Source of the DNA: Virgisporangium aurantiacum
Lineage (GTDB): Bacteria; Actinomycetota; Actinomycetes; Mycobacteriales; Micromonosporaceae
DNA length: 46,544 nucleotides
Assembly (NCBI RefSeq): GCF_016863635.1
Contig: NZ_BOPG01000010.1
Span: 1-46,544, forward strand
Reading direction: 5' to 3'
The notes beneath the pieces are model-generated. The model saw nothing but the letters and a program-made list of their open reading frames with translations, ran no database searches and had not been told where the DNA came from. Positions 21,119 to 33,671 of this stretch are shown here, piece by piece (the first letter of the stretch is position 1; every line of letters begins with the position of its first letter). The translations under genes were made by a program, and so were the position numbers.

Positions 21119-21670
21119 TCAGTAGCCGTACAGGGTGGGTGTGTAGGAGGTGCCCGGTCCGCTCGAGTAGGAGCCGACGCCCCAGATGCTGCCGATGCTC
21201 AACATCCGTGTGTAGCAGACACCGCTCGATGCCGGTCCGGTGGTCACGGCGCGCTGGTTGTTGAAGTCCGCGGTGTTGAGGCTGTAGAACCTGATGGTCG
21301 CGATCAGGTTCCCCTGGCCGTCGTAGCAGCCGCTTGCCCGGGTCCAGCCGGTCTTGCACGTCGGGCTGTACCGGAAGGCCGGCACCGTTCCGGTCGGCCG
21401 GTTGATGGTGATCGCGTCGTCCTCACACTTCAGGTTGTCCTCGCATGCCGGCCCGCAGTAGTAGATGTAGTAGGTGTGCGGGTTCTGGAAGTCACATTTC
21501 GTGCCACAGCCGGTGAGCGCGAGCTGAGCCGCGTCCGTCGGCACGGGCCGCTCCGACACCGCCGCCATGGACGCGGGCCGCTCCGATCCGGCCGCCTGGG
21601 CCGGGATCGCGGGACCGAGCGTCGCCAGCACGGCGATCGCCGTGCCGACAACGATGCGCCATCTGATCAT
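21119..21670 (-). CDS. Small secreted DUF2690-like protein
   Basis: A 183-aa protein with a clear signal peptide (MIRWRIVVGTAIAVLATL ending PAQA). The mature part has six or more cysteines (TGCGTKC, YYCGPACEDNLKC) followed by FRYSPTCKTGWTRASG, the typical C-x-D...RYS.TC.T.WAR pattern of DUF2690 extracellular proteins. A GAGGAG site lies before ATG 21670; the longer upstream frame has no support. It is the first gene of a two-gene operon with the SGNH protein (one base between) and is divergent from the SARP regulator, sharing its 160-base control region. It may be a secreted companion of the large hydrolase; function unknown. Confidence 0.7.
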   Translation of the reverse strand: MIRWRIVVGTAIAVLATLGPAIPAQAAGSERPASMAAVSERPVPTDAAQLALTGCGTKCDFQNPHTYYIYYCGPACEDNLKCEDDAITINRPTGTVPAFRYSPTCKTGWTRASGCYDGQGNLIATIRFYSLNTADFNNQRAVTTGPASSGVCYTRMLSIGSIWGVGSYSSGPGTSYTPTLYGY

Positions 21671-21762
21671 GTACGTCTCCTCGTTGCGTGGGTTCACGGC
21701 ACCGGGTGCCGACCCTCGTCGGCGCCCGGTGCCGACCGACGGTGACATCGTCCGGACCGTCG

Positions 21763-21795
21763 GTTCACCGCCGGTACAACCGCGATACAACGCGG
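21763..21795 (+). promoter_or_regulatory. Three contiguous 11-bp repeats, likely SARP operator
   Basis: Three imperfect 11-bp units follow one another without gaps: 21763-21773 (core GTTCACCG), 21774-21784 and 21785-21795 (both with core TACAACNGCG or close). SARP/AfsR-type regulators bind direct repeats with 11-bp phasing next to a -10 box, and AfsR sites contain GTTCAC-like cores. The array is 35 bases upstream of the SARP gene start at 21831 and in the shared divergent region with the 21670 gene. Autoregulation or control of the secreted pair is inferred. Confidence 0.55.
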
Positions 21796-21830
21796 AGCGC
21801 AGGGGCCATTTGACAGACGGAGTTCAATTG

Positions 21831-24800
21831 ATGACGGACATCGAACTCGTACGAGGGGCCGCGGTGGAGTTTCGAGTCTTGGGTGCTTTGCGGGTCATCA
21901 ACGACGGTGTGGAGCTGACCCTGCCCAGCGCCTACAAGCAGCGCCTGACCCTCGCCGTCCTGCTCGCGCACGCCGGCCGGTGGGTGCCCACCGACACTTT
22001 GATCTCCGCCGTGTGGTCGGGGGCCGAGCCGCCATCCGCGCGCCGCAACCTCCACCAGTACATCCACCGGCTCCGCGGGACGCTCGGCCCGCACCGGCTG
22101 CCCGGCCGGGCCGGCGGGTACTGCGTGGTCGTCGGCGACGGGCTCGACTCAGCCCGGTTCGAGAGCACCGTCGTGGCCGGCCGGGCGGCGCTGGCCGAAT
22201 CCGGCGCCGACCCTGCCGTCGCCGCCCGCACGCTCCGCAGCGCGGTGGACCTGTGGCGCGGCCCCGCCTACGCGGACTTCCCGGACTGCGACCTGGTCTC
22301 CCGCGAGGCCGAACGGCTGGACCGCCTCCGGCTCGACGCCGTGGAATCGTGGGCCGCGGCCACCCTCGCTCTGGGCCAGGCCAACGACGTGGTCACCGAG
22401 CTGACCGACCTGACCCGGTCCTACCAGTTCCGGGAGAGCCTGCGGGAGCAGCTCATGCTCGCGCTCCACCGGTGCGGCCGACGGGCAGAGGCGCTGGACG
22501 AGTTCCACCAGCTCCGGGACCTGCTGCGGGATCACCTCGGTATCGAGCCCGGAACGACGGTGCAGCGGCTGTACCTCCGCATCCTGCGCGGCGAGGAGGC
22601 GGACACCCGCACCGGCACGGAGGCGGGCGCCGACACCGGTTCGGTTGCCCGCGATTCGCGGTCGGGTGAAACGGCCGCGCCGCGCCCGGCCGCCCGGTCA
22701 CGCGGCGCACCGCCCACCGTGGACGCACCGGCACTGTTGCCGGCCGACGTCGCGGACTTCACCGGTCGCGCCGAGCACCTGGCCGCGCTGGACGCGTTGG
22801 TCCGGGGCATTCCCGACGCGCTAAGGATCGTCACCCTCGACGGTGCCGCGGGTGTCGGCAAGAGCGCTCTCGCCGTGCACTGGTCGCACCGGGTACGCCG
22901 AACGTTCCCTGACGGCCATCTTTTCCTGGACCTGCGCGGCTACTCGCAGGAGGCGCCGCTGCGCCCGATCGAGGCACTGGTCCGGCTCTTCTTCGCCCTC
23001 GGGGTACCACCGGACCGCGTACCGGACAACCTCGACGATGCAACAGGCATGTACCGCACCCTCCTTGCGGACCGCAAGATGCTGGTGGTTCTCGACAACG
23101 CCCGTGACGCCGAGCAGGTACGCCCGCTGTTGCCGGGCGTGGGCGAGTCGTTCACTCTGGTGACGAGCCGCGACCCGCTTACCGCACTGGTCGCCCGGGA
23201 CGGGGCCCGCCGGGTCAGGCTGGAACCGCTGCCGGCCGCGGAAGCGCGGGCGTTGCTCGCGTCGGTCCTCGGTGCGGGCCGGATCCGGCGGGACGCTGCG
23301 ACCGCCGACCTCGTCGAGGTCTGCGCCAGGCTCCCGCTGACGTTGCGCATCGCCGGGGTGTATCTCCTCGGTGAACCGTCCCTGTCCATCGCGTCCTATG
23401 TGGAGCGGTTGCGCGCCGATCCCCTCACCGGCCTGGATATCCCGGACGCGCCACAGTTCGGCGCCCGGGCCGCGTTCGAGTTCACCTACCGGATCCTGCC
23501 GATCGAGGTGCGGCGGCTGTACGGGCTCCTCGGCGGTGTGCCAGGTCCGCACATCAGCGACGCCGCGGCCGCCGCCCTGGCCGGTGTCCCGGTCGACCAA
23601 GCGGGGCAGCAGCTGCGCCGGTTGCTACGGGCGCATCTGCTGCACGAACACGCACCTGGCCGGTTCGGCATGCACGACCTGCTCGCCGCCTTCGCACGCG
23701 ACGTCGCAGTGCGCGACCTGTCACCCTCGACGCGCCAACAGGCGGTACACCGGCTGCTGGAGTGGTACCTCAACCTGGCCCGGGCGGCCGGGGAACGGCT
23801 GTACCCGGACGTGCTCCGCCTGCCCGCCGCCGCGCCCGCGCGCGCGTTCACCGATGACACCGACGCACTGGCCTGGTTGCGTGGCGACGAGCCCAATCTG
23901 ATCGCCGCGATCCACCACGCCGCCGGGCACGGCGAGCTGCCCGCCGCCTGGCAGCTCGCCGACGCGATGCGGGCCTACCTGAGCCAGCGCGGTGCCTCAC
24001 TCATCCTGCGCGAGGTCGGGCGGACCGCACTGGCCGCGGCCGGCGCAGCCGGAGACGCCGCCGGTCAGATCGCCAGCTACCTCGGCCTCGCGCACGAGGC
24101 GATGATGAGCAGCCGCCTCGCGGATGCCCGGGACCACTATGAGCGGGCACTGAAACTGAGCGAGACCGCCGGTTGGACCGAGGCACAGGCCGCACTCCTG
24201 AGCAACCTCGGCGTGCTGCACGCCCGCCAAGGCGAGCTGGACGACGCCCTCGACCGGCAGCGCCGGGCATTGATCCTGCACCGGCGCCTCGACAAGCCCG
24301 CCGGCGTCGCCGTCAACCTCGGCAACCTCGGCGGCGTCTACGACCGGCTCGGCCGGCTCAGGGAAGCGGCTGACGCGATGACCGAGGCGCTGGAGATCCA
24401 CCGGGCCGGCAAGGTGCTGTCCGGCCAGGCCATGCAGCTCAACAACCTTGCGGTGATTTACCGGGAGCTGGGCCACCTGCCGGAGGCCATCACATACGGC
24501 CGGGAGGCGCTCGCGGTATACCGGGAGCTGGGCAGTGCGGTCGGCGAGGGCATGGCCCTGTGCGACCTGGCCGAGACCTTCCGCGCGGCGGGTGACCCGG
24601 CCCGCGCCCTCGATCACGCCGAACGGGCACTGGCCATCCCGGAACTGGCCGACCATCCCGAGCACCAGGCCCAGTCGTGGCACCACCTTGGCCTCGTACA
24701 CGCCGCCATGGCGAGGCACGACACCGCGATGAGCGACTACGACCGCGCACTCGCGACCGCCCGTACGACCGGCAACCCGGAACTGGAGGCGCAGATCCTG

Positions 24801-25151
24801 GTCAGCCTCGCCACGGCCCACACCGGCCGCGGGCACCACGACCGAGCCGCCTTGCTGGCCGGAACCGCATTGGCGATCGCCGACACGATGCGTCTCGGGG
24901 TGCTCCGCGGTGAGGCCCGCTCGGCGCGGGCCTCAGTCCATCTGGCGCTGGGCGAGCTTGGCGAGGCGATCGCGTTGGCCACCGAGGCGTACGCCATCCA
25001 CGACGCCACGGGTCACCGGCAGGGACTGATCCGCGCGCTCCAACTCCTCGCCGACGCGTACACCGCCCGCGGCGATGAGACGTCGGCCGGCAGGTACCAC
25101 ACCCTGCTCGGCCAGGCGCGTCAATCATCGCCGGCCGGCGTCAAGGCGTAA
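21831..25151 (+). CDS. AfsR/SARP-type regulator (wHTH-BTAD-NB-ARC-TPR), 1106 aa
   Basis: The order of domains is that of AfsR-like regulators. An OmpR-type winged helix (EFRVLGALRV, LPSAYKQRLTLAVLLAHAG, about 10-100) is followed by a BTAD domain (about 105-250; REQLMLALHRCGRRAEALDEF), an NB-ARC ATPase with Walker A DGAAGVGKSAL (about 341) and Walker B-like LVVLDNARD, and at least seven TPR-like repeats from about 720 to the end (LLSNLGVLHARQGELDDAL, VNLGNLGGVYDRLGRLREA). The start ATG 21831 has an ACGGAG site; upstream frame extension is antisense to the 21670 gene. Such proteins activate secondary metabolism or peptide clusters; its position beside the peptide-export operon makes it the best candidate activator. 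Confidence 0.9.
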   Translation: MTDIELVRGAAVEFRVLGALRVINDGVELTLPSAYKQRLTLAVLLAHAGRWVPTDTLISAVWSGAEPPSARRNLHQYIHRLRGTLGPHRLPGRAGGYCVVVGDGLDSARFESTVVAGRAALAESGADPAVAARTLRSAVDLWRGPAYADFPDCDLVSREAERLDRLRLDAVESWAAATLALGQANDVVTELTDLTRSYQFRESLREQLMLALHRCGRRAEALDEFHQLRDLLRDHLGIEPGTTVQRLYLRILRGEEADTRTGTEAGADTGSVARDSRSGETAAPRPAARSRGAPPTVDAPALLPADVADFTGRAEHLAALDALVRGIPDALRIVTLDGAAGVGKSALAVHWSHRVRRTFPDGHLFLDLRGYSQEAPLRPIEALVRLFFALGVPPDRVPDNLDDATGMYRTLLADRKMLVVLDNARDAEQVRPLLPGVGESFTLVTSRDPLTALVARDGARRVRLEPLPAAEARALLASVLGAGRIRRDAATADLVEVCARLPLTLRIAGVYLLGEPSLSIASYVERLRADPLTGLDIPDAPQFGARAAFEFTYRILPIEVRRLYGLLGGVPGPHISDAAAAALAGVPVDQAGQQLRRLLRAHLLHEHAPGRFGMHDLLAAFARDVAVRDLSPSTRQQAVHRLLEWYLNLARAAGERLYPDVLRLPAAAPARAFTDDTDALAWLRGDEPNLIAAIHHAAGHGELPAAWQLADAMRAYLSQRGASLILREVGRTALAAAGAAGDAAGQIASYLGLAHEAMMSSRLADARDHYERALKLSETAGWTEAQAALLSNLGVLHARQGELDDALDRQRRALILHRRLDKPAGVAVNLGNLGGVYDRLGRLREAADAMTEALEIHRAGKVLSGQAMQLNNLAVIYRELGHLPEAITYGREALAVYRELGSAVGEGMALCDLAETFRAAGDPARALDHAERALAIPELADHPEHQAQSWHHLGLVHAAMARHDTAMSDYDRALATARTTGNPELEAQILVSLATAHTGRGHHDRAALLAGTALAIADTMRLGVLRGEARSARASVHLALGELGEAIALATEAYAIHDATGHRQGLIRALQLLADAYTARGDETSAGRYHTLLGQARQSSPAGVKA

Positions 25152-25282
25152 CCGTGGCCCGTCGTCGCGAGCAACCGCCGGAACAGCTCGGGCGGCAGGC
25201 ACCGGTCGAGCGCAAGACCGTTCCGGAACATGGCGCACGACGCCACCCCCGCAACGACAACCACGTAACGACACCGGCGCAA
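25121..25282 (-). CDS. Possible small membrane protein or lipoprotein at the end of the export operon
   Basis: A 53-codon frame starting at TTG 25282. A GGAGG lies directly after the TGA of the S26 peptidase gene (19 bases between genes), which suggests that something downstream is translated, although the spacing of 12 bases to TTG is long. The N-terminus is basic and then hydrophobic (RYVVVVAGVASC), either a membrane anchor or a weak lipobox. The rest has ALDRCLPPELFRRLLATTG. The last 31 bases overlap the 3' end of the convergent SARP gene. I do not recognise the product. Confidence 0.35.
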   Translation of the reverse strand: MRRCRYVVVVAGVASCAMFRNGLALDRCLPPELFRRLLATTGHGYALTPAGDD

Positions 25283-25301
25283 AGGCGAATCTTGCCTCCA
25301 A

Positions 25302-25769
25302 TCACGAAGGCATCGACGCCCGGCCCATCCGGCGCACCACCACGCCGCGAACCTGGCCGACCGGTAGGTACCCGAGCTGGCGCGAGTCACCACTGGCAGG
25401 CCGGTTGTCGCCGAGAACCACCAGCTGGCCAGGTGCCACCCGACCGGTCCAGGGCAGCTCGACCGGGACTGGGTCGCCAGGGAGGGCTGCGATCCGTTTG
25501 ACCAGCCACCGGGTCGGGGCAGGTGCACCTGGGCCGCCGTACCGATCGCCCATCCGCACCGGAGACCATTCGACGACGACGATCTGACCGACCGCAAGGC
25601 GGGCGCGCGGAACCCGCCGCGCGATCAGCCGGTCGCCCGGTTCGAGCGCCGGGCGCATGCTCGCTCCGTCGACCGTCACAATCACGAGGTATCGACGCAG
25701 CCACGCCAGCGTGGCGCCACCAACCACCACGGCGAGCACTCCGACCATGACCAGGCCTATCACGCTCAT
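25302..25769 (-). CDS. S26-family signal peptidase
   Basis: A 155-aa membrane-anchored serine peptidase. One N-terminal helix (MSVIGLVMVGVLAVVV) precedes the catalytic serine in VDGASMRPALEPGD, the Lys in TRWLVKRIAALPGDPV, and the conserved LGDNRPASGDSRQLGYLPV box. All elements of the Ser/Lys dyad of type I signal peptidases are present, with the short catalytic core typical of dedicated actinobacterial enzymes. Its ATG overlaps the TGA of the ABC transporter gene (ATGA). The nearby peptides end their leader in an A-x-A site, the usual recognition of this family, so it probably cuts them during or after export. Confidence 0.88.
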   Translation of the reverse strand: MSVIGLVMVGVLAVVVGGATLAWLRRYLVIVTVDGASMRPALEPGDRLIARRVPRARLAVGQIVVVEWSPVRMGDRYGGPGAPAPTRWLVKRIAALPGDPVPVELPWTGRVAPGQLVVLGDNRPASGDSRQLGYLPVGQVRGVVVRRMGRASMPS

Positions 25770-27601
25770 CGCGCGTCGACCGTGGCGGTCGGCAGGTAGC
25801 CCTCTGCCTGCATCCGGAACAGGCGCGCATAGGCGCCGTCGGCGGCCATCAGCCAATCGTGGTCGCCACGTTCGACGATCTGCCCGTCGTCCAGGACGAC
25901 GACGATGTCGGCGGTGCGGATCGTACCCAGCCGATGCGAGACGAGCAGGCTGGTCCGATCCCCGCGGTGACGACGCAGCCCGGCGTGGATCTCGTGTTCG
26001 GCAGCGGCGTCCAGTCCGGAGGTCGGTTCATCGAGGATGATCAGATCGCGTCTCTCGCGGACGAGTGCGCGGGCGACCGCGACACGCTGCCACTGCCCAC
26101 CGGACAGGTTCACTCCGTCGTCGGTGCCGAACGAGCGGCCGAGCAGGCTGTCGTACCCCTGCGGAAGCTCTGTCAGGACACCGTGGACACCGGCCAGCTC
26201 GGCGGCCCATTCGATCGTGGCCTTGTCGGCGGTCATGTCACCCAGGGCGATGTTCTCGGCGGCGGTCATGTCGTACCGCATGAAGTCCTGGAAGATCGCG
26301 CTGATCCGCTGGCGCAGGTCGGCCACCGGCAGGTCACGGAGATCGACGCCGTCCCACAGGATGCTGCCCCGGGTCGGGTCGTAGAACCGGCACAGCAGCT
26401 TGACCAGGGTGCTCTTGCCCGCGCCGTTGGCGCCCACTATGCCCACCGAGGCGCCGTACGGAATCGTCAGTGTGACGCCGCGCAGCGCCCATGGATGGTC
26501 CTCGGAGTAACGGAACCAGACGTCGCGCAGCTCGATCCCGCGCCGCAAACCCGGCACGGCATGGCCGGCCCCGGTACCGGCACTGGCTTTGGCACCGGGG
26601 CGGTCGCCGCTGGCTCCGACGACGCCCTGGTAGTGCCGGAAGATCGTTACGTGCTGGACGCACGCCGCCACGCCGAAAGCGAGCGAGTCGAGGCTGCCCC
26701 GAACTGCGGCCAGCGCTGCCAGCACCATCGACAGTTCGCCGATCGTCATGCCACCCGAGGTCGTCAACCAGATCGCCCACCCCAGAGCCAGGCCCGCGAC
26801 CGTGGCGGAGAGCAGGCCGAGGCCGCCCTGGACGGCGACGGTCCGGCGGTCGAGCCGGCGCTGCAACACATTGATCGCGGCCCGCTCCCCCAGCATCCGG
26901 GTGCGCAGGTGATCGCCGATGCCGAACAGCCGGACCTCCTTGGCGGCCTGCGGATCGCCCAGGAGCGAGGCGTAGAACCACTCGCGGCGCTGCATGCCGG
27001 TTGTCGTGACCAGCGCACCGACCCGCGCCCGGGCGAGGCGCAGCTCACCCAGGAAGGCCGGACCGGCCGCGAAGAGGACGATGGCGGTCAGCGGCGCGCT
27101 GATCACCATGATCGAGGCCACAAAGCCGATGCAGGTGACGCAGTTACGCAGCAGGGTCAGTGCGGCCATCGTGAGCTGCCCCGGGGTGGCGAGTCCGGCC
27201 TGCTCCGCCATCCGCAACCGGTCAAGGAACGCGGGACTCTCGAACGGCGCGAGACCGCTGATCCGGTTGACCGCCCGATACAGCCGGTCCTGCGCGGCGA
27301 GGCTGCTCCGCCGGCCGAGTTCCGCCTGGGCGTACCGGGAGGCATGCGGTTCGACGGCGCTGAGCAGCCCCGCGACGACCAAGCCCCCCGCCAGTGCCGA
27401 CACCTCCTGCCACGACGGCACCGTACCGGTCAAGTGGTCCAGCAGATGTTTGACCAGCCAGGCGGTGGCCACCGGCAGCACGGCGACGGCCAGTGAGAGC
27501 GCGATGACGCCGCACAGTGCGACCGGTGCGGCGCTCAGGCACAGCGCGAGCGCGGAGCTGACGGCACGCGGCCACGAGACCCCGCTCTCCCCCGGTGTCA
27601 T
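25766..27601 (-). CDS. ABC exporter, fused membrane and ATPase domains (peptide export)
   Basis: A 611-aa half-transporter. Residues 1-340 are an ABC-type membrane domain with about six helices. The ATPase follows: Walker A GANGAGKST (about 390), Q-loop, signature LSGGQWQRVAVARAL (about 497), Walker B DLIILDEPTSGLD and H-loop LLVSHRLGT, all intact. There is no C39 peptidase domain at the N-terminus, so cleavage must be done elsewhere, consistent with the adjacent S26 gene. The ATG overlaps the stop of the thioredoxin gene and the stop overlaps the S26 start. It resembles exporters of lantibiotic or other peptide clusters. Export of the Cys-rich peptides is inferred. Confidence 0.88.
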   Translation of the reverse strand: MTPGESGVSWPRAVSSALALCLSAAPVALCGVIALSLAVAVLPVATAWLVKHLLDHLTGTVPSWQEVSALAGGLVVAGLLSAVEPHASRYAQAELGRRSSLAAQDRLYRAVNRISGLAPFESPAFLDRLRMAEQAGLATPGQLTMAALTLLRNCVTCIGFVASIMVISAPLTAIVLFAAGPAFLGELRLARARVGALVTTTGMQRREWFYASLLGDPQAAKEVRLFGIGDHLRTRMLGERAAINVLQRRLDRRTVAVQGGLGLLSATVAGLALGWAIWLTTSGGMTIGELSMVLAALAAVRGSLDSLAFGVAACVQHVTIFRHYQGVVGASGDRPGAKASAGTGAGHAVPGLRRGIELRDVWFRYSEDHPWALRGVTLTIPYGASVGIVGANGAGKSTLVKLLCRFYDPTRGSILWDGVDLRDLPVADLRQRISAIFQDFMRYDMTAAENIALGDMTADKATIEWAAELAGVHGVLTELPQGYDSLLGRSFGTDDGVNLSGGQWQRVAVARALVRERRDLIILDEPTSGLDAAAEHEIHAGLRRHRGDRTSLLVSHRLGTIRTADIVVVLDDGQIVERGDHDWLMAADGAYARLFRMQAEGYLPTATVDAR

Positions 27602-28137
27602 ACCGGTGCCAGCATGGTGGTCGTGTCGCACAGATGCCGTCCGGAGTCGGTGACGACGCCGCCATCGACCAGGCACAGCGCCGGAAATCCGCGAACCTTG
27701 AACGCTTCGCTCACCACGGCGGCCTGCGCTCCCGATACCACGGTCGCCACCGCCGACAGCCGCTCGCGGTAGCCGACCTGTTCAGCGGGGTCGCCGTCGG
27801 TCACCACCGCGATCGCCGGCCGATCGGTCGCGGCCGCCGTCGCGAGGAAGCGCGGCAGCAGTTCGGCGCACGGCTGACAACCGGGAGCGAAGAACGCCAC
27901 CAACGTCGGGCCGGACAGCAGTCCGGGAGACACAACTGTGCCGTCGTCGGCCACCGCCGAGAAGTCCTCCACCGGCGTGCCCACCGGTAGGACCATGTCG
28001 TCGCCGACGTTCCGTCCGCCGCGCTGCGACAGCAGCTCGGTGTGCTGCCGCAAGCGCCTGATCACTCCGTAGGTCAGCAGCAGATTGACCAGCGCCACCC
28101 CGCCGACGAGAACGACGGCTGCGACAAGGATCGACAT
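27598..28137 (-). CDS. Membrane-anchored TlpA/MauD-like thioredoxin
   Basis: A 179-aa protein with an N-terminal membrane helix (SILVAAVVLVGGVALVNLLL) and an extracytoplasmic thioredoxin fold. The active site is APGCQPCAELLP, a CxxC of the TlpA/MauD type, and the cis-proline loop is GFPALCLV. In the methylamine dehydrogenase system MauD pairs with MauE to form disulfides; here the MauE-like gene lies directly upstream, 24 bases away, with a GGAAGGGG site before this ATG. Its stop overlaps the ABC start. A role in oxidising or shuffling disulfides in the eight-cysteine peptides is the natural inference. Confidence 0.85.
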   Translation of the reverse strand: MSILVAAVVLVGGVALVNLLLTYGVIRRLRQHTELLSQRGGRNVGDDMVLPVGTPVEDFSAVADDGTVVSPGLLSGPTLVAFFAPGCQPCAELLPRFLATAAATDRPAIAVVTDGDPAEQVGYRERLSAVATVVSGAQAAVVSEAFKVRGFPALCLVDGGVVTDSGRHLCDTTTMLAPV

Positions 28138-28161
28138 CGGTACCCCTTCCAGGTCCGTTAC

Positions 28162-28677
28162 TCAGGTGACGAATACCTCAACGAGGTCGTTGAGGTAGAT
28201 CAGCAGGCCGGCGACGATGACACCGGTGACGGCGGCCAGTACCTGGCCCGCGGATGCCACAGGTGCGTGCCCGTCCAGCAGCCACGCCAGCAGACCGGCA
28301 CCGGCGATCACCCACAGCACGCCGTTGCGGGCCAGGTCCAGGTAGCCGAGCCGGGCGCGGGCCGGGCCGAAGCACCGGCACCGCACCGCCGTCTCCCGCC
28401 GTACCAGTACCGCGATCGCGCCGATGAAGATTGTCAATAGCAGCCCGGCGATCAGGTAGCCGATCGGCGCACCGATCGCAAGCGCCACCGCGACGGCCAT
28501 CTCGGCCAGCACGATCATGACCGCCGCCGGCCGCAGCACTCCATTGCCGATGAGCCGAGTGGTCCGCAGCATGCCGACGAACTCGCCGAACGCGCGCGGA
28601 CCGGCGACCTTGCTGCCGGCCGACACCGCGAAGGTCAGCCCGACGACACAGCGGCAAACGACTTCCAGGTACTTCAT
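28162..28677 (-). CDS. MauE/DoxX-family redox-associated membrane protein
   Basis: A 171-aa protein with four to five membrane helices. It matches MauE/DoxX-type proteins: the opening LEVVCRCVVGLTFAVSAGSKV, then FGEFVGMLRTT, and the loop with a vicinal-type cysteine pair VRCRCFGPAR before the last helices. Such proteins feed electrons to or from a thioredoxin-like partner in disulfide chemistry; that partner is the next gene. A start four codons upstream (28689) is equally possible. It is the first gene of the export operon and is divergent from the peptide genes, sharing about 120 bases of control region. Confidence 0.82.
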   Translation of the reverse strand: MKYLEVVCRCVVGLTFAVSAGSKVAGPRAFGEFVGMLRTTRLIGNGVLRPAAVMIVLAEMAVAVALAIGAPIGYLIAGLLLTIFIGAIAVLVRRETAVRCRCFGPARARLGYLDLARNGVLWVIAGAGLLAWLLDGHAPVASAGQVLAAVTGVIVAGLLIYLNDLVEVFVT

Positions 28678-28705
28678 GAACCGGACCATACGGACAGCGA
28701 CGCCA

Positions 28706-28730
28706 GTTCGCGTACAACGCAAGCTGTATC
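28706..28730. promoter_or_regulatory. Candidate SARP-type site between MauE and peptide genes
   Basis: In the divergent region the words GTTCGC (28706) and GTACAACGC (28712) resemble the repeat units at 21763-21795, where GTTCAC and TACAAC cores recur at 11 bp. On the other strand a further ATACA lies 11-12 bases away. This is the only such similarity I noticed in the cluster. It could bind the 21831 regulator and drive both the operon and the peptides. The match is short and unproven. Confidence 0.35.
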
Positions 28731-28765
28731 GAGTCTGTCGGCTCGACTCGTAGCGTCTCCTCGCG

Positions 28766-28786
28766 CCGGCCGCATCTCGCGGCCGG
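28766..28786 (+). promoter_or_regulatory. Leader hairpin upstream of peptide gene A
   Basis: CCGGCCGC and GCGGCCGG form a perfect 8-bp stem around the loop ATCTC, ending 20 bases before the ATG of peptide A. The same hairpin precedes peptide B. It may control translation or mRNA stability, or act as a processing point; there is no U-tract, so a classic terminator is unlikely. Confidence 0.5.
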
Positions 28787-28806
28787 ATACGGCGAAGGGG
28801 AAACGG

Positions 28807-29031
28807 ATGCTCAGATTCCGGTCGGTGGCGGACGGCCTGCTCGGCCTGTTCGTGCCGAAACTGACCGCGGCCGCCGGGCCGCCATGCCAGGACCTGATCG
28901 AATACTGGTGCGCGTACAGCGCACGGTGCGCCAGCAACAGCAGCCCGTGGTACGTGCAGGCCTACCAGCGCGTCTGCAACACCTGCTACGGCTGCGGGTA
29001 CGGGTGGCAGGCTGGCTGCTGCTCGGTGTAA
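28807..29031 (+). CDS. Cysteine-rich precursor peptide A
   Basis: A 74-aa peptide with AAGGGG seven bases before its ATG. Residues 1-23 form a leader with a basic start, a short hydrophobic stretch (LLGLFV), PKLTAAA and an A-x-A cleavage site; a predicted mature form of 51 aa would begin GPPC. The core has eight cysteines spaced C-x7-C-x5-C-x15-C-x2-C-x2-C-x7-C-C and includes SNSSPWYVQAY and CNTCYGCG. Eight cysteines and the redox genes next door suggest four disulfides. No radical-SAM, lanthionine or cyclase gene is nearby, so extensive RiPP modification is unlikely. A secreted defensin-like, antimicrobial or signalling peptide is possible. I recognise no described family. Confidence 0.8.
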   Translation: MLRFRSVADGLLGLFVPKLTAAAGPPCQDLIEYWCAYSARCASNSSPWYVQAYQRVCNTCYGCGYGWQAGCCSV

Positions 29032-29075
29032 CGACCGGGCGACGGCGTGCCCCTCGACAACGCTCAACGGCTCCG

Positions 29076-29096
29076 CCGGCCGCATCTCGCGGCCGG
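29076..29096 (+). promoter_or_regulatory. Leader hairpin upstream of peptide gene B
   Basis: An exact copy of the first hairpin (stem CCGGCCGC / GCGGCCGG, loop ATCTC), located between peptide genes A and B and 21 bases before ATG of B. Being duplicated with its gene, it likely functions in the 5' leader of each peptide message; it could also separate the two transcripts. Confidence 0.5.
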
Positions 29097-29117
29097 ACAC
29101 GGCGAAGGGGGAGATCG

Positions 29118-29339
29118 ATGCTCAGATTCCGGTCGGTGGCGGACGGCCTGCTCGGCCTGTTCGTGCCGAAACTGACCGCGGCCGCCGGGCCGCCATGCCA
29201 GGACCTGGTCCAGAACGACTGTGGCGTATCGAGGTGCGTCAGCAACAGCAGCCCGTGGTACGTGCAGAACTACCGGCGCGTCTGCAACACCTGCTACGGC
29301 TGCGGCAACTGGCAGTTCTCCGGCTGCTGCTCGGTGTAG
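29118..29339 (+). CDS. Cysteine-rich precursor peptide B
   Basis: A 73-aa paralogue of peptide A. The first 30 residues are identical, including the A-x-A leader end. The core aligns on all eight cysteines with one residue fewer in the second loop (C-x7-C-x4-C-x15-C-x2-C-x2-C-x7-C-C). Conserved parts are SNSSPWYVQ, RVCNTCYGCG and GCCSV; the loops QDLVQND-C-GVSR and GNWQFSG differ from A. Its last 46 bases overlap the 3' end of the convergent SARP-type gene on the other strand. The pattern suggests two peptides with one scaffold and different surfaces. Confidence 0.8.
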   Translation: MLRFRSVADGLLGLFVPKLTAAAGPPCQDLVQNDCGVSRCVSNSSPWYVQNYRRVCNTCYGCGNWQFSGCCSV

Positions 29340-31111
29340 CGACCGGCGACGACGTGCCCCTCGACCGCGCTCGACGGCTCGCGTCGGGGGGCATCTCCGG
29401 CGGCCAGTTCGGTTGCCAACAGCCGGACGAACCTGGGTAACCGGAACCGGTCCGGGCCGACCGGGACGACGAAGTGGATCCGGCTCAATTGGTCCAGCAC
29501 CGTCTGGCAGGCCGGCCCGGTACGGCCCAGGCGACGCGCGATGTCCACCATGTCGAGCTCACCGGGCGCTACAAGGCAGGGCAGCGCCGACCGTACGCAG
29601 TCGTCGACCGCCCGCAGCGCCGCGCCCAGCCGGGAGCGGAGGCTGAGACCGTCGGTCACCATCTCCGCGAGCGCCCTTCGGTCGTCCAGCACCCGGTCCA
29701 CCAGTACCCCGACCGGTAGCTCGGGCTGGTCGATCAGACGTGCCGCCGCGATTCGCAGGGCCAGCGGCAGGCCTGCGCACGCGCGGGCGAGTCGGTCCAG
29801 GTCGGACCGGCTGGACCGGTCGGTATCCAGCAGCTCGGCCAGCAGGTCGACCGCCTCGGCGTCGGCCAGCGGGGCAAGGTGAACGCGACGGTCGGCGTCG
29901 ACCATCCCGAGCGGGCTGACGCTGGCCGCAAGCAGACAGCAACCCGTACCGACGGCCATGAGCGGACGGACGTGGGCAGCGACCGCGACGTTGTCGGCGA
30001 CGACCAGCAGCCGCCGATCGGCTGTGAACCGCTGGACCACGGCGGCCGCCTCGATCGCGTCGACAGCCGGCTCGTGCGGTCTCAGAAGCCGTGACAGTCG
30101 GCCCAGCACCCGCGCGACCGGATCCGGGTCGTCGGCACCGAGGTCTCCGAGATCCATGTACAGCAGACCGTCGGGGAAGTCGTCGGCGAGCTCGTGCGCG
30201 GCGCGCAACGCCATCGCGGACGTTCCAACGCCGACCGGCCCGTCGGCGACCACCACGTACGGTCCTCGGCCGACCTCCCGTGCCCGCACCGCGTCGACAA
30301 CGGCGTTCACCGTCGCATCGCGGCCGACCAGCCGGACCGGTGACGGCGCGAGCTGGACCGGTGCGGGACTGCGCGTGGTCGCGTTCCACCGCAGCAGGGA
30401 CCGGTGTGTCCGGGTGAGGTCCGGATCCGGGTCGAGACCCAACTCAGCGCCGAATACCTGTCGAGCGTCCTGGAACACGGCATCCACCAGATCGTGCTCA
30501 CCCAGCCGGTGGTGTGCCAGCATCCGCAGCTGCCAGGCCCGCACCCGTAACGGCGCCACCGCGAGCACGCCGGCCAAATCCCGGGCAGCGTCACGCGGCG
30601 TGCCTGCGGCGAGCCGCGCCTCGGCCAGGTCCTCCACCGCGCGTAGGCGCTCCTCGTCCAGGCTGTCGAGCCAGCAACCCAGCGGGCCATGGCGGGGAAC
30701 ACCCGCCGCTGCCCCCGAACCCCGCCAGAGCGCCTGCGCCCGGGTCAAGAGGTCGACGGCGACCGCCGGCTCACCCCGCGCGCAGGCCGCGCCGCCCGCG
30801 GACGCGAGCCGGCCGAAGGTCAGGTGATCACATCGCTCCGGCGCCACCCGCAGCCGGTAGCCGCCAGCCTCGAAGACCACGGTCGCTCCGGCCGGGTCGA
30901 GCGCGGTCCGCAGCCCGCAGGCGTAGCTGCGCAGGTTCGCGATCGCAGAGCGCGGCGGCTCCCCGTCCCACAGGACACGCACGAGCCGCTCGACCGACAC
31001 ACACTCGTTGGCGCACATCACAAGCGCCACCAGTAGCGCCTTCGGCTTGATCCCGCACAGTCGCGCGGCGCCCGCCACCTCCACCGAGCCGAGAATTCCG
31101 ATAGTCAGCAC
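29294..31111 (-). CDS. SARP/BTAD regulator with degenerate NB-ARC P-loop
   Basis: A 605-aa protein. GTG 31111 has GGGGAGG eight bases upstream; the upstream extension is not supported. A winged helix (LTIGILGSVEVAG, KPKALLVALVM, about 1-95) is followed by a BTAD domain (about 100-245; VRAWQLRMLAHHRLGEHDL) and an NB-ARC-like module. The P-loop region reads DGPVGVGTSAMAL (about 290): the lysine of GxGK(T/S) is replaced by Thr, so ATP binding is probably lost. The Walker B-like VVADNVAVA is also weak. There is no TPR tail, and the protein stops after the winged-helix part of the ATPase module. The 3' end overlaps peptide B by 46 bases. It may be a second, nucleotide-independent regulator of the peptides. 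Confidence 0.85.
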   Translation of the reverse strand: MLTIGILGSVEVAGAARLCGIKPKALLVALVMCANECVSVERLVRVLWDGEPPRSAIANLRSYACGLRTALDPAGATVVFEAGGYRLRVAPERCDHLTFGRLASAGGAACARGEPAVAVDLLTRAQALWRGSGAAAGVPRHGPLGCWLDSLDEERLRAVEDLAEARLAAGTPRDAARDLAGVLAVAPLRVRAWQLRMLAHHRLGEHDLVDAVFQDARQVFGAELGLDPDPDLTRTHRSLLRWNATTRSPAPVQLAPSPVRLVGRDATVNAVVDAVRAREVGRGPYVVVADGPVGVGTSAMALRAAHELADDFPDGLLYMDLGDLGADDPDPVARVLGRLSRLLRPHEPAVDAIEAAAVVQRFTADRRLLVVADNVAVAAHVRPLMAVGTGCCLLAASVSPLGMVDADRRVHLAPLADAEAVDLLAELLDTDRSSRSDLDRLARACAGLPLALRIAAARLIDQPELPVGVLVDRVLDDRRALAEMVTDGLSLRSRLGAALRAVDDCVRSALPCLVAPGELDMVDIARRLGRTGPACQTVLDQLSRIHFVVPVGPDRFRLPRFVRLLATELAAGDAPRREPSSAVEGHVVAGRYTEQQPENCQLPQP

Positions 31112-31418: not shown

Positions 31419-33671
31419 ATGTTCGGTCAGCTGGTTCGCACGCACCGGCAGCGGCTTGGCCTGACCCAGCAGGAGCTGGCAGACAAGTCGGGTCTAGGGT
31501 CACGCAGCATCCGAAATCTGGAGGCAGGTCGGATCGCGTCACCCCGGCCGACGACCATACGGCTGCTCGCCGATGCCTTCGGTTTGACCGGCCCTGCCCG
31601 CGACCGGTTCTGCGAGGTGGCAGCCGGAGCGTCGACCGGTCAGCCCGTCAACGTGGTGACACCGGCACAGCTGCCCCCGGACGTGTTCGGCTTCACCGGC
31701 CGCCAAGCCGAGCTGGCCGAGCTTGACGCACTTCTCGCAGAACTGGATAGACGGGCACAGACCGCCGTGGTGATCTCGGCCTTGTCGGGCACCGCCGGCG
31801 TTGGCAAAACCGCCCTGGCGGTGCACTGGGCCCACCGGGTACGTGACCGGTTCCCCGATGGCCAGCTATATATCAACCTGCGCGGCTTCGACTCCGTGGG
31901 TACCGCAATGAGCCCTGCCAAAGCCACCCGCCGGTTGCTCGACGCCCTCCACGTGCCGTCTCATCACATCCCGACCGACCCCGACGCTCAGGTGGGGCTC
32001 TACCGGAGCATGATCGCCGACCGGCGGGTGCTGGTCGTCCTGGACAACGCCCGCGATTCGCAACAAGTACGGCCACTGCTGCCCGGCTCGCCGAACTGCC
32101 TGGCCCTGATCACCAGCCGAAACCGACTCACCGGTCTGGTCGCCGGCGACGGAGCCCACCCCGTCAGCCTGGACGTGCTGTCTCCTGCCGAAGCGCGGGA
32201 CCTATTGGCCCACCGCCTCGGCGCCGCCCGGCTCGAGGCCGAGGCAGACTCGGTCGAAAAGATCATCTCCGCCTGCGCACGGCTCCCGCTGGCGTTGGCC
32301 ATCGTGGCTGCCCGCGCCGCGACCCACCCTCGTCTCCCGCTCGCCGCACTGGTCGACGACCTGGATGACCGCCGCACCCGGCTGGAGGCCCTGGCCACCA
32401 CCGATCCGGCCACCGACGTACGTGCCGTGTTCTCGTGGTCCTACGACACGCTCACCAGCGCCGCAGCACGGCTGTTCCGGCTGCTCGGACTGCCCCCCGG
32501 CGCAGACATCACCCTCGCCGCCGCAGCCAGCCTCGCCGCCCTACCGACCAACCAGGTCCGGCCGCTACTGATCGAACTCGTCGACGCCAACCTCCTCGGT
32601 GAGCACGCACCGGGCCGGTACACCTTCCACGAGTTGCTCCGCGGGTACGCCCACCAACTCACGTACGTCCATGACCCGGAGGACCAACGGCACGCCGCGA
32701 CACGGCGCATCCTCGACCACCACCTGCACACCGCCTACGGGGCAGCCAGGCTCCTGTACCCGCATCGAGACCCGATCACCCTCAGCCCTCCCCAACCGGG
32801 GGTGACACCGCAGCGCCTGCTCGACCACCGGCGCGCGCTGGCCTGGTTCGCCACCGACTACCAGACGCTGCTCGCCAGCGTGGACTACGCAGCAGACAAT
32901 CGGCTCGACCCGTATCCATGGCAACTCGCTTGGACCCTCGCCGACTTTCTCGATCGGCAGGGCCACTGGCACGACCGGATCGCCGTCCAGCGTCACGCCC
33001 TCGCCGCGACCCAACGGCTGGGCGACCCGGCCGCGCAAGCCCTCGCCCACCGCTACCTCGCCCGCGCCTACCGCCAAGTTGGCCGCACCAACGAGGCCCG
33101 AGGCGAATTTGACCTGGCCCTCGATCTGTACCGCCGATGCGGGGACCGGGTGGGAGAGGCCGACACCCATCAGAATCTCGCCGCGATGTACGAGCGGCAG
33201 ACAAACTATCGCGACGCACTACACCACGCCCTGCAGGCCGTCGGCCTGTATCAGGCATGCGATCACCGGCCCGGACACGCCAACGCCCTCAACGCCGCCG
33301 GCTGGTGCCACGCCCACCTCGGCGAGCCCCACCAAGGCGTCACCCTGTGCCAGCAGGCTCTGGCCATCCAGCAAGTGCTCCGCGACCGCCCAGGCGAAGC
33401 AGCCACCCACGACAGCCTCGGTTACATCTACCGCCACCTCGGCGAGTGCGAACACGCCATCGACCATTACCGTTACGCCATTACCCTCTACCGCGACCTG
33501 GGCGACCGTTACCACGAAGCCGAATCACTCGCCAACCTGGGCCACACCGACCACACCGCTGGCCACCACGACGACGCTCAGCAAGCCTGGCAACAGGCGC
33601 TGACCATCCTGGACGAGCTGAGCCACCCCGACGCCGACCTTGTTCGCAACACACTCCGCAACTGCCGATGA
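31419..33671 (+). CDS. HTH-NB-ARC-TPR regulator
   Basis: A 750-aa protein preceded by GGAGGAGCGGG. It begins with an XRE-type helix-turn-helix (LVRTHRQRLGLTQQELADKSG, RSIRNLEAGRIASP), then NB-ARC with intact Walker A GTAGVGKTAL (about 125), VLVVLDNARDSQQV and GLPP-like motifs, and a TPR region from about 500 to the end (ATHDSLGYIYRHLGECEHAI). This is a common actinobacterial STAND-type regulator that couples ligand or protein sensing to DNA binding. It is divergent from the 605-aa SARP gene. A role in this cluster is possible but unproven. Confidence 0.88.
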   Translation: MFGQLVRTHRQRLGLTQQELADKSGLGSRSIRNLEAGRIASPRPTTIRLLADAFGLTGPARDRFCEVAAGASTGQPVNVVTPAQLPPDVFGFTGRQAELAELDALLAELDRRAQTAVVISALSGTAGVGKTALAVHWAHRVRDRFPDGQLYINLRGFDSVGTAMSPAKATRRLLDALHVPSHHIPTDPDAQVGLYRSMIADRRVLVVLDNARDSQQVRPLLPGSPNCLALITSRNRLTGLVAGDGAHPVSLDVLSPAEARDLLAHRLGAARLEAEADSVEKIISACARLPLALAIVAARAATHPRLPLAALVDDLDDRRTRLEALATTDPATDVRAVFSWSYDTLTSAAARLFRLLGLPPGADITLAAAASLAALPTNQVRPLLIELVDANLLGEHAPGRYTFHELLRGYAHQLTYVHDPEDQRHAATRRILDHHLHTAYGAARLLYPHRDPITLSPPQPGVTPQRLLDHRRALAWFATDYQTLLASVDYAADNRLDPYPWQLAWTLADFLDRQGHWHDRIAVQRHALAATQRLGDPAAQALAHRYLARAYRQVGRTNEARGEFDLALDLYRRCGDRVGEADTHQNLAAMYERQTNYRDALHHALQAVGLYQACDHRPGHANALNAAGWCHAHLGEPHQGVTLCQQALAIQQVLRDRPGEAATHDSLGYIYRHLGECEHAIDHYRYAITLYRDLGDRYHEAESLANLGHTDHTAGHHDDAQQAWQQALTILDELSHPDADLVRNTLRNCR

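What the first reader, a model, noticed from the sequence alone, without database searches (positions are those of the whole stretch)
25121..31111. Undescribed disulfide-peptide secretion cluster
Seen: two Cys-rich precursor genes are divergent from an operon encoding a MauE/DoxX protein, a TlpA/MauD-like thioredoxin, an ABC exporter without C39 peptidase and an S26 signal peptidase, with SARP-type regulators on both sides. Three adjacent start/stop overlaps tie the operon together. Known: MauE with MauD acts in disulfide formation, S26 peptidases cut after A-x-A, and BTAD proteins regulate peptide or metabolite clusters. Inference: a dedicated route for producing, oxidising, exporting and trimming eight-cysteine secreted peptides, without the modifying enzymes of classical RiPPs. 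I recognise no named family with this combination.
Basis: partly seen in the sequence, partly recalled or inferred. Interest (0 to 1): 0.93.

Follow-up and report, generated by a model that had tools for sequence, protein, structure and literature searches.

The report
Bacterial factory for disulfide-rich peptides
This actinobacterium carries two small-peptide genes with eight cysteines each beside genes predicted to export the peptides, likely join their cysteines in pairs and likely cut off a shared leader; 44 of 80 related loci hold the whole set, 82 of 85 distinct peptide cores have an even number of cysteines, and this one genome has 17 copies of the set's thioredoxin-type gene, so it looks like a large and apparently little-studied store of toughened secreted peptides.

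Summary
Two tandem peptide genes (74 and 73 aa; identical first 23 residues; 8 Cys per core) lie divergent from mauE, a thioredoxin-fold gene (TRX), a C39-less ABC exporter and an S26 peptidase, with SARP regulators on both sides. No other gene family recurs in more than 10 loci, so no shared modifying enzyme is evident. Cores are variable, 18% Cys, with even Cys number in 82 of 85 distinct cores, the mark of full disulfide pairing. The leader ends A-x-A and carries a conserved charged pair; S26 probably cuts it. The genome holds 17 TRX loci and 23 peptides (contamination 9%). Prior art: decRiPPter (PMC7794033) flagged Streptomyces mauE clusters with peptides of at least 8 Cys in 2020; eight literature searches listed nothing later that I recognised. 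Export, oxidation, cleavage and role are inferred; the side of oxidation and Sec export remain open.

The parts
28807..29031 (+). peptide gene A, 74 aa: likely leader 28807-28875 (23 aa, ends A-A-A), core 51 aa with 8 Cys
   Evidence: (leader profile 33.7 bits)
29118..29339 (+). peptide gene B, 73 aa: identical likely leader 29118-29186, core 50 aa with 8 Cys
   Evidence: (leader profile 33.5 bits); my simple gene caller missed it
28162..28689 (-). MauE-type membrane protein with CxCFG (an alternative ATG lies at 28677)
   Evidence: PF07291 3.1e-21, above cut-off; CxCFG in 53 of 53 relatives
27598..28137 (-). membrane-anchored thioredoxin-fold protein (TRX) with CxxC
   Evidence: PF00085 23.9 bits against 23.5; CxxC in 80 of 80 relatives
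25766..27601 (-). ABC exporter half-transporter without a reported C39 domain; ATGA overlap with TRX
   Evidence: PF00005 and PF00664, no C39 model; overlap
25302..25769 (-). S26 signal peptidase (GASMRPA and LVKRIAALPGD boxes); ATGA overlap with ABC
   Evidence: PF10502 70 bits; sequence and overlap
29294..31111 (-). SARP/AfsR-type regulator (BTAD), tail to tail with peptide gene B
   Evidence: PF03704 1.1e-23
21654..25151 (+). SARP/AfsR-type regulator with BTAD, NB-ARC and TPR domains on the left side
   Evidence: PF03704 6.2e-40, TPR, NB-ARC below cut-off; gene call
28725..28756 (+). predicted SARP-type promoter of peptide gene A: two heptamers in 11-bp register, 8 bp before TAGCGT
   Evidence: 7 of 80 upstream stretches; 0.01 in shuffles, 0.14 from density
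28766..28786 (+). exact 8-bp inverted repeat before gene A
   Evidence: stretch folds with z -2.55
29076..29096 (+). the same inverted repeat before gene B
   Evidence: z -0.61, not significant as a fold

Best explanation
The genes encode two small eight-cysteine peptides with an identical N-terminal stretch (the likely leader), together with machinery predicted to export them, likely to join their cysteines into four disulfide bonds and likely to cut the leader off at A-x-A. Proposed order: SARP regulators would switch on the peptide genes from the predicted promoter; the C39-less ABC exporter would recognise the amphipathic leader (L-G/A-D-R-L-L-x3-V-P-x3-A-x-A) and carry the peptide across the membrane; MauE and the thioredoxin would take electrons from the thiols so that all cysteines pair; the dedicated S26 peptidase would cut after A-x-A and release a compact core of about 5.6 kDa. 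Shown by sequence: the gene set, its recurrence, the leader motif, the even-cysteine rule, and that no other gene family recurs in more than 10 of 80 loci. Inferred: expression, export route, oxidation, cleavage, order and regulation. The likely role is a secreted, variable, defensin-like antagonistic peptide; that is the least supported step.
For: Loci recruited by TRX alone (the best 80 of 98): ABC 70, S26 71, MauE 52, peptide 73 of 80 within 6 kb; all five in 44. Of 1297 called genes only TRX (80 loci), ABC (74), S26 (64), MauE (53) and SARP/TPR regulators (42) recur widely; the next family is in 10. A leader profile without core residues gives 124 hits of at least 8 bits, all 124 followed by at least 4 Cys (the 14 leaders that built it are among them, and some loci came from a Cys-containing profile). 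Even Cys number in 82 of 85 cores under 50% alike. Motifs: CxxC in 80 of 80 TRX, CxCFG in 53 of 53 MauE, SMxP[TA] in 63 of 71 S26. Leader: A at -1 in 69 of 70, A at -3 in 61 of 70. SARP-like promoter. Two Streptomyces plasmids show peptide-MauE-TRX-ABC-S26 or peptide-TRX-ABC-S26 in order.
Against: No expression, mass or activity data. By the positive-inside rule TRX (net charge after the membrane helix above that before it in 68 of 76) and the MauE CxCFG loop (mean 4.0 K/R against 0.6 D/E, 53 proteins) would face the cytoplasm, against oxidation outside. A crude hydropathy comparison did not separate the leaders from A-x-A-bearing protein starts (median 1.37 against 1.35, a mixed control), so Sec export is not excluded. 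MauE is absent within 6 kb in 28 of 80 loci and found at 1 of 17 own-genome TRX loci. No immunity gene recurs. 7 of 80 TRX loci have no peptide found within 6 kb; 3 of 17 in the own genome have none. 7 of 23 own-genome peptides, and 7 of 20 loci fetched by peptide profile, have no TRX. Three cores have odd Cys counts. AlphaFold was uninformative (pLDDT 43.6).
Confidence: 0.72

Rival explanations
1. The peptides leave by the general Sec route, S26 acts as their signal peptidase, and the ABC protein serves something else, such as self-protection.
For: The leader ends A-x-A and S26 is a signal peptidase family; the hydropathy comparison did not separate leaders from other protein starts.
Against: An acidic residue at -15 in 57 of 70 and a basic one at -14 in 53 of 70 leaders, plus a frequent K/R at -6, are unusual for a Sec signal (recalled); ABC lies within 6 kb in 70 of 80 loci.
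Confidence: 0.15
2. The redox pair faces the cytoplasm and keeps the thiols reduced, or pairs them there, before export.
For: By the positive-inside rule the TRX domain and the MauE CxCFG loop would lie on the cytoplasmic side.
Against: Speculated role of MauE in disulfide formation in the beta-subunit of methylamine dehydrogenase (PMC7794033 passage); that MauD acts outside is recalled.
Confidence: 0.2
3. The peptides carry thioether, azole or sugar modifications made by enzymes encoded elsewhere in the genome or by neighbours that differ from locus to locus.
For: Leader-core layout and cores with Cys, Ser and Thr; the neighbours of the 80 loci were clustered, not all scanned for enzyme families.
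Against: No other gene family recurs in more than 10 of 80 loci; even Cys numbers (82 of 85) are not expected for thioethers or azoles.
Confidence: 0.08
4. The genes mature a methylamine dehydrogenase or another redox enzyme and the small ORFs are incidental.
For: MauE and MauD-like similarity.
Against: Peptides co-occur in 73 of 80 loci and related ones are under purifying selection. No TIGR02661 or PF02975 hit in the genome, but the control genomes rang nowhere, so this is weak.
Confidence: 0.03
5. The peptides are surface or developmental proteins, or signals for the SARP/TPR regulators, not antagonists (the same machinery, another role).
For: SARP/TPR regulator families in 42 of 80 loci and no recurring immunity gene.
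Against: Variable cores behind a constant leader, 17 TRX loci in one genome and plasmid carriage fit antagonism better.
Confidence: 0.3

Closest known systems
decRiPPter mauE candidate RiPP families of Streptomyces (PMC7794033; passages and section 7 read)
   Same: mauE (one family also mauD) with a precursor of at least 8 Cys, in clusters filtered to hold a transporter, a regulator and a peptidase; Streptomyces viridosporus is named there, and L125 here comes from that species.
   Different: Flagged as candidates only. The leader motif, the A-x-A/S26 reading, the even-cysteine rule, the spread over 33 genera and the copy number are not in section 7. Their S2 Table was not open to me, so identity of the peptides is not shown.
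Glycocins (PMC12457901, passages found by term)
   Same: Leader plus Cys-rich core, thioredoxin-like proteins and an ABC exporter in one cluster; disulfides.
   Different: Glycocins have a glycosyltransferase and a C39 domain in the exporter; neither was seen here, but a separate S26 peptidase and often MauE.
C39 peptidase-containing exporters with double-glycine leaders
   Same: Leader predicted to be removed at small residues in connection with ABC export.
   Different: Exporter and peptidase are two proteins and the predicted cut is after A-x-A. A term search of the review PMC10885120 on RiPP leader proteases has no hit for signal peptidase, S26 or AxA.
Actinobacterial lanthipeptides (recalled)
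   Same: Leader plus Cys-containing core.
   Different: No Lan enzyme in the window proteins scanned; even Cys counts.

Membership tests
decRiPPter mauE-type candidate RiPPs | mauE homologue next to a precursor with at least 8 Cys | tested here: met
   PF07291 above cut-off; 8 Cys in each core
decRiPPter mauE-type candidate RiPPs | precursor similar in sequence to theirs | not testable with these tools
   S2 Table not readable here; only the shared species S. viridosporus (L125)
Glycocin | glycosyltransferase in the cluster | tested here: not met
   none among the 12 window proteins scanned with Pfam (9, 3); no further recurring family in 80 loci
Glycocin and double-glycine peptides | C39 domain in the ABC exporter | tested here: not met
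   no C39 model in the Pfam scan; median length of the ABC cluster 609 aa
Lanthipeptide, azole or radical-SAM RiPPs | class-defining enzyme beside the precursor | tested here: not met
   window: none among 12 proteins scanned. Other loci: only recurrence tested, not each neighbour; enzymes elsewhere in the genome not tested
Sec-secreted peptide | uncharged hydrophobic stretch before A-x-A | tested here: inconclusive
   charged pair at -15/-14 in most of 70 leaders, but hydropathy did not separate them from a mixed control; no signal-peptide predictor available
S26 signal peptidase | S26 profile with Ser and Lys boxes | tested here: met
   PF10502 70 bits against 22.9; boxes seen in the sequence
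MauE | PF07291 above cut-off | tested here: met
   76.5 bits against 27
MauD | TIGR02661 above cut-off | tested here: not met
   26.4 bits against 188.6
Methylamine dehydrogenase system | methylamine dehydrogenase subunit in the genome | tested here: inconclusive
   no PF02975 hit, but the control genomes rang nowhere either
Disulfide-bonded secreted peptide | disulfides in the mature product | not testable with these tools
   indirect only: even Cys number in 82 of 85 cores

The most novel reading that the evidence does not exclude
A class of its own among bacterial secreted peptides: variable, all-disulfide miniproteins behind one constant A-x-A leader, sent out by a C39-less ABC exporter, oxidised by a MauE/thioredoxin pair and trimmed by a dedicated S26 peptidase, with a single genome carrying more than twenty different cores, a bacterial counterpart of venom or defensin gene families.
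Probability: 0.5. Interest if true: 0.92.

Novelty: new variant of a known kind. Interest (0 to 1): 0.8.

Why it matters
Disulfide-rich miniproteins are valued for their stability, and to my knowledge (recalled) large bacterial gene families of them are not established. If the reading holds, 138 of 354 genomes of this family carry a gene set for exporting and oxidising such peptides; the leader motif is a simple search key for genes that a gene caller can miss (mine missed gene B); and the split ABC plus S26 design would add a leader-removal route to RiPP biology. It can be tested directly: predicted monoisotopic masses of 5658.264 and 5530.245 Da with four disulfides and four gene deletions.

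Tried and rejected
Led nowhere: a scan of named genomes with the single peptide found no relative, and the protein database gave only the window's own peptide and one JGI protein, so the family shows up with profiles. AlphaFold of the precursor gave pLDDT 43.6, so no fold search was made. NCBIfam, Pfam and PDB-sequence scans of 15 diverse precursors gave no credible family. The hydropathy comparison with other protein starts used a mixed control and did not separate the groups. The inverted repeat before gene B is not significant as a fold. The decRiPPter supplementary table could not be opened.

Rejected or disfavoured: glycocin membership (no glycosyltransferase or C39 seen), lanthipeptide or azole classes (no enzyme among window proteins, no recurring one elsewhere), methylamine metabolism (weak controls). 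Weak hits of the peptide profile (100 of 354 genomes at E <= 0.01, many probably chance) were not counted; 20 stretches were fetched, mostly around weak hits and a few around stronger ones, and 13 of them had TRX.

Dropped before counts: 4 of the 11 other genomes with a match had no true relative by eye. In one search two of 62 leader hits (0 and 2 Cys; L157:16039, L161:4882) are spurious, leaving 58 even of 60. In one search one 6.4-bit leader hit with no Cys was dropped. One search used an 8-bit cut and removed similar cores.

Full report
What is there. The window is one whole 46,544-base contig (C10) of a 14.1 Mb genome, 97.64% complete and 9.05% contaminated. Its family is probably Micromonosporaceae: the contig of relative G143 has the length of Micromonospora halophytica NZ_FMDN01000022.1 (97,490). 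Two tandem genes at 28807-29031 and 29118-29339 encode peptides of 74 and 73 aa, identical in the first 23 residues, with cores of 51 and 50 aa and 8 Cys each. On the other strand run mauE, trx, abc and S26. The junctions are two ATGA overlaps and one 24-bp gap, not three overlaps. SARP/BTAD genes lie on both sides.

Is the set real? A search of 300 family genomes with the peptide gave 12 genomes with a match at E <= 0.01, the own one included; by eye 7 of the other 11 hold a true relative. All seven loci carry TRX, ABC, S26 and SARP; a MauE-like gene stands beside TRX in each, by tblastn in four and by position and similarity of the called gene in three. I then turned the search round. A scan of named genomes with an alignment of seven TRX proteins found 98 relatives, of which the tool kept the best 80, from 33 named genera by my count of its titles. 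Within 6 kb of TRX in these 80 loci there are ABC 70, S26 71, MauE 52 and a peptide 73; all five in 44, all but MauE in 19. The peptide was sought with a profile of the leader alone, built from 14 leaders. Clustering 1297 called genes gave TRX 80, ABC 74, S26 64, MauE 53 and SARP/TPR 42 loci, then a drop to 10; these counts differ because they use gene clustering over the whole locus. Families too divergent for blastp would be missed, and I did not scan each neighbour for enzyme domains.

The even-cysteine rule. Over the loci in hand, 124 leader hits of at least 8 bits all have at least 4 Cys in the core; the leaders that built the profile are among them, and the loci and part of 57 came from peptide profiles that contain Cys. 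After removing cores at least 50% alike, 85 remain: 82 even (4 Cys: 4; 6: 21; 8: 41; 10: 15; 12: 1) and three odd (5, 7, 7). In the TRX-recruited set alone 58 of 60 are even (less two spurious hits). Parity of other residues in the same cores: S 45, T 48, Y 48, W 41, R 46, N 45, A 44 and G 27 of 85 even; G departs from half. Of 332 unrelated Cys-rich ORFs 132 are even (that set starts at 5 Cys, which favours odd). The cores share ancestry, so the printed p-values overstate; still, a rule kept across counts of 4 to 12 is what full disulfide pairing would leave.

The leader. In 70 distinct leaders: A at -1 in 69, A at -3 in 61, P at -7 in 57, acidic at -15 in 57, basic at -14 in 53. In a Sec signal that stretch is normally uncharged (recalled). 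A crude hydropathy comparison gave no separation (1.37 against 1.35, mixed control), and no signal-peptide predictor was at hand. I read the leader as a signal for the dedicated ABC protein with an S26 cut site, a split version of the C39 exporter; both are inferred. Of 71 S26 proteins 63 show SMxP[TA]; seven of the other eight have another residue after SMxP and one is cut short. All 71 have a K-R or K-I pair further on, a loose test.

Selection. Eleven relatives of equal length (Micromonospora type) give pN/pS 0.12 in the leader and 0.45 in the core; the window's own pair gives no change in the leader and about 0.77 in the core.

Regulation. The first peptide gene is preceded at 28725-28756 by TGT-8-TGT-12-TAGCGT. 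Heptamers with 4-bp spacers are known SARP operators (PMC5930380, passages); the 8-bp distance to the -10 box is recalled. The strict pattern is in 7 of 80 upstream stretches, against 0.01 in shuffles and 0.14 from its density in the loci; shifted spacings give 0, 0, 1 and 2. Five of the seven are Micromonospora orthologues. Gene B lacks it.

Copy number. TRX occurs in 138 of 354 family genomes at E <= 1e-20 (nine candidates scored per genome) and in 2 of 396 genomes drawn across the phylum at E <= 1e-15, one being the own genome (eight scored per genome). The own genome has 17 TRX loci. In the fetched stretches ABC is there in 15, S26 in 16, a peptide in 14 and MauE in 1 (the window). With TRX-less loci there are 23 peptides, 22 with even Cys; 7 of the 23 have no TRX beside them. 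Seven relatives of my choice, re-scanned in depth, had 1 to 7 TRX matches. Contamination may add copies. TRX relatives lie on 11 plasmid records (9 Streptomyces, 2 Embleya); I looked at the neighbours of two, and both have the peptide, TRX, ABC and S26 in order, one also MauE, with 6 and 8 Cys in the cores.

Against. Nothing was expressed. The topology puzzle leaves the side of oxidation open. MauE is not universal. No immunity gene recurs. Seven of 20 loci fetched by peptide profile have the leader but no TRX, so some peptides may be served in trans. AlphaFold gave nothing.

Prior art. decRiPPter (PMC7794033; passages, section 7) reports three Streptomyces candidate families with mauE, one also with mauD, each with a precursor of at least 8 Cys, suggests a role in precursor modification, and had filtered for transporter, regulator and peptidase genes. 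Their listings, capped at 8 to 20 titles where many papers matched, showed no characterised member that I recognised; the library lacks most subscription papers. A term search of the review PMC10885120 has no hit for signal peptidase, S26, AxA or disulfide. I therefore rate this a new variant of a known kind (leader-peptide exporters), flagged before by bioinformatics, and leave 'a class of its own' as the bold case.

Noticed in passing
own genome: window, L052, L053, L057, L059, L162-L164, L166-L174: One genome carries 17 TRX loci and 23 peptides with different cores; seven relatives re-scanned have 1 to 7. Of the 17, MauE is found only at the window's locus.
   Followed up: partly
L054:5766, L055:6117, L056:6010, L178:5305: Peptides with the family leader and 6 to 8 Cys but no TRX, ABC, S26 or MauE in the fetched stretch; they may use the machinery of other loci.
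   Followed up: partly
window 28690-28724 (minus strand): By eye, a weaker SARP-like repeat (TGTACGC, TGGCGTC) stands 8 bp before TATGGT upstream of mauE, which would make the promoter divergent; seen in this one sequence only.
   Followed up: no
window 28766-28786 and 29076-29096: An exact 8-bp inverted repeat with a 5-base loop precedes the ribosome-binding site of both peptide genes.
   Followed up: partly
TRX and MauE of L082-L161: Positive charges follow the TRX membrane helix and flank the MauE CxCFG loop, so the positive-inside rule would put both redox sites in the cytoplasm.
   Followed up: partly
L179, L180 (Streptomyces plasmids): Gene sets on plasmids, one next to an integrase gene, one between transposase genes, which suggests mobility.
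   Followed up: no
window 31419-33671 (+): A further HTH/NB-ARC/TPR regulator lies next to the right-hand SARP gene; whether it belongs to the set is unknown.
   Followed up: no
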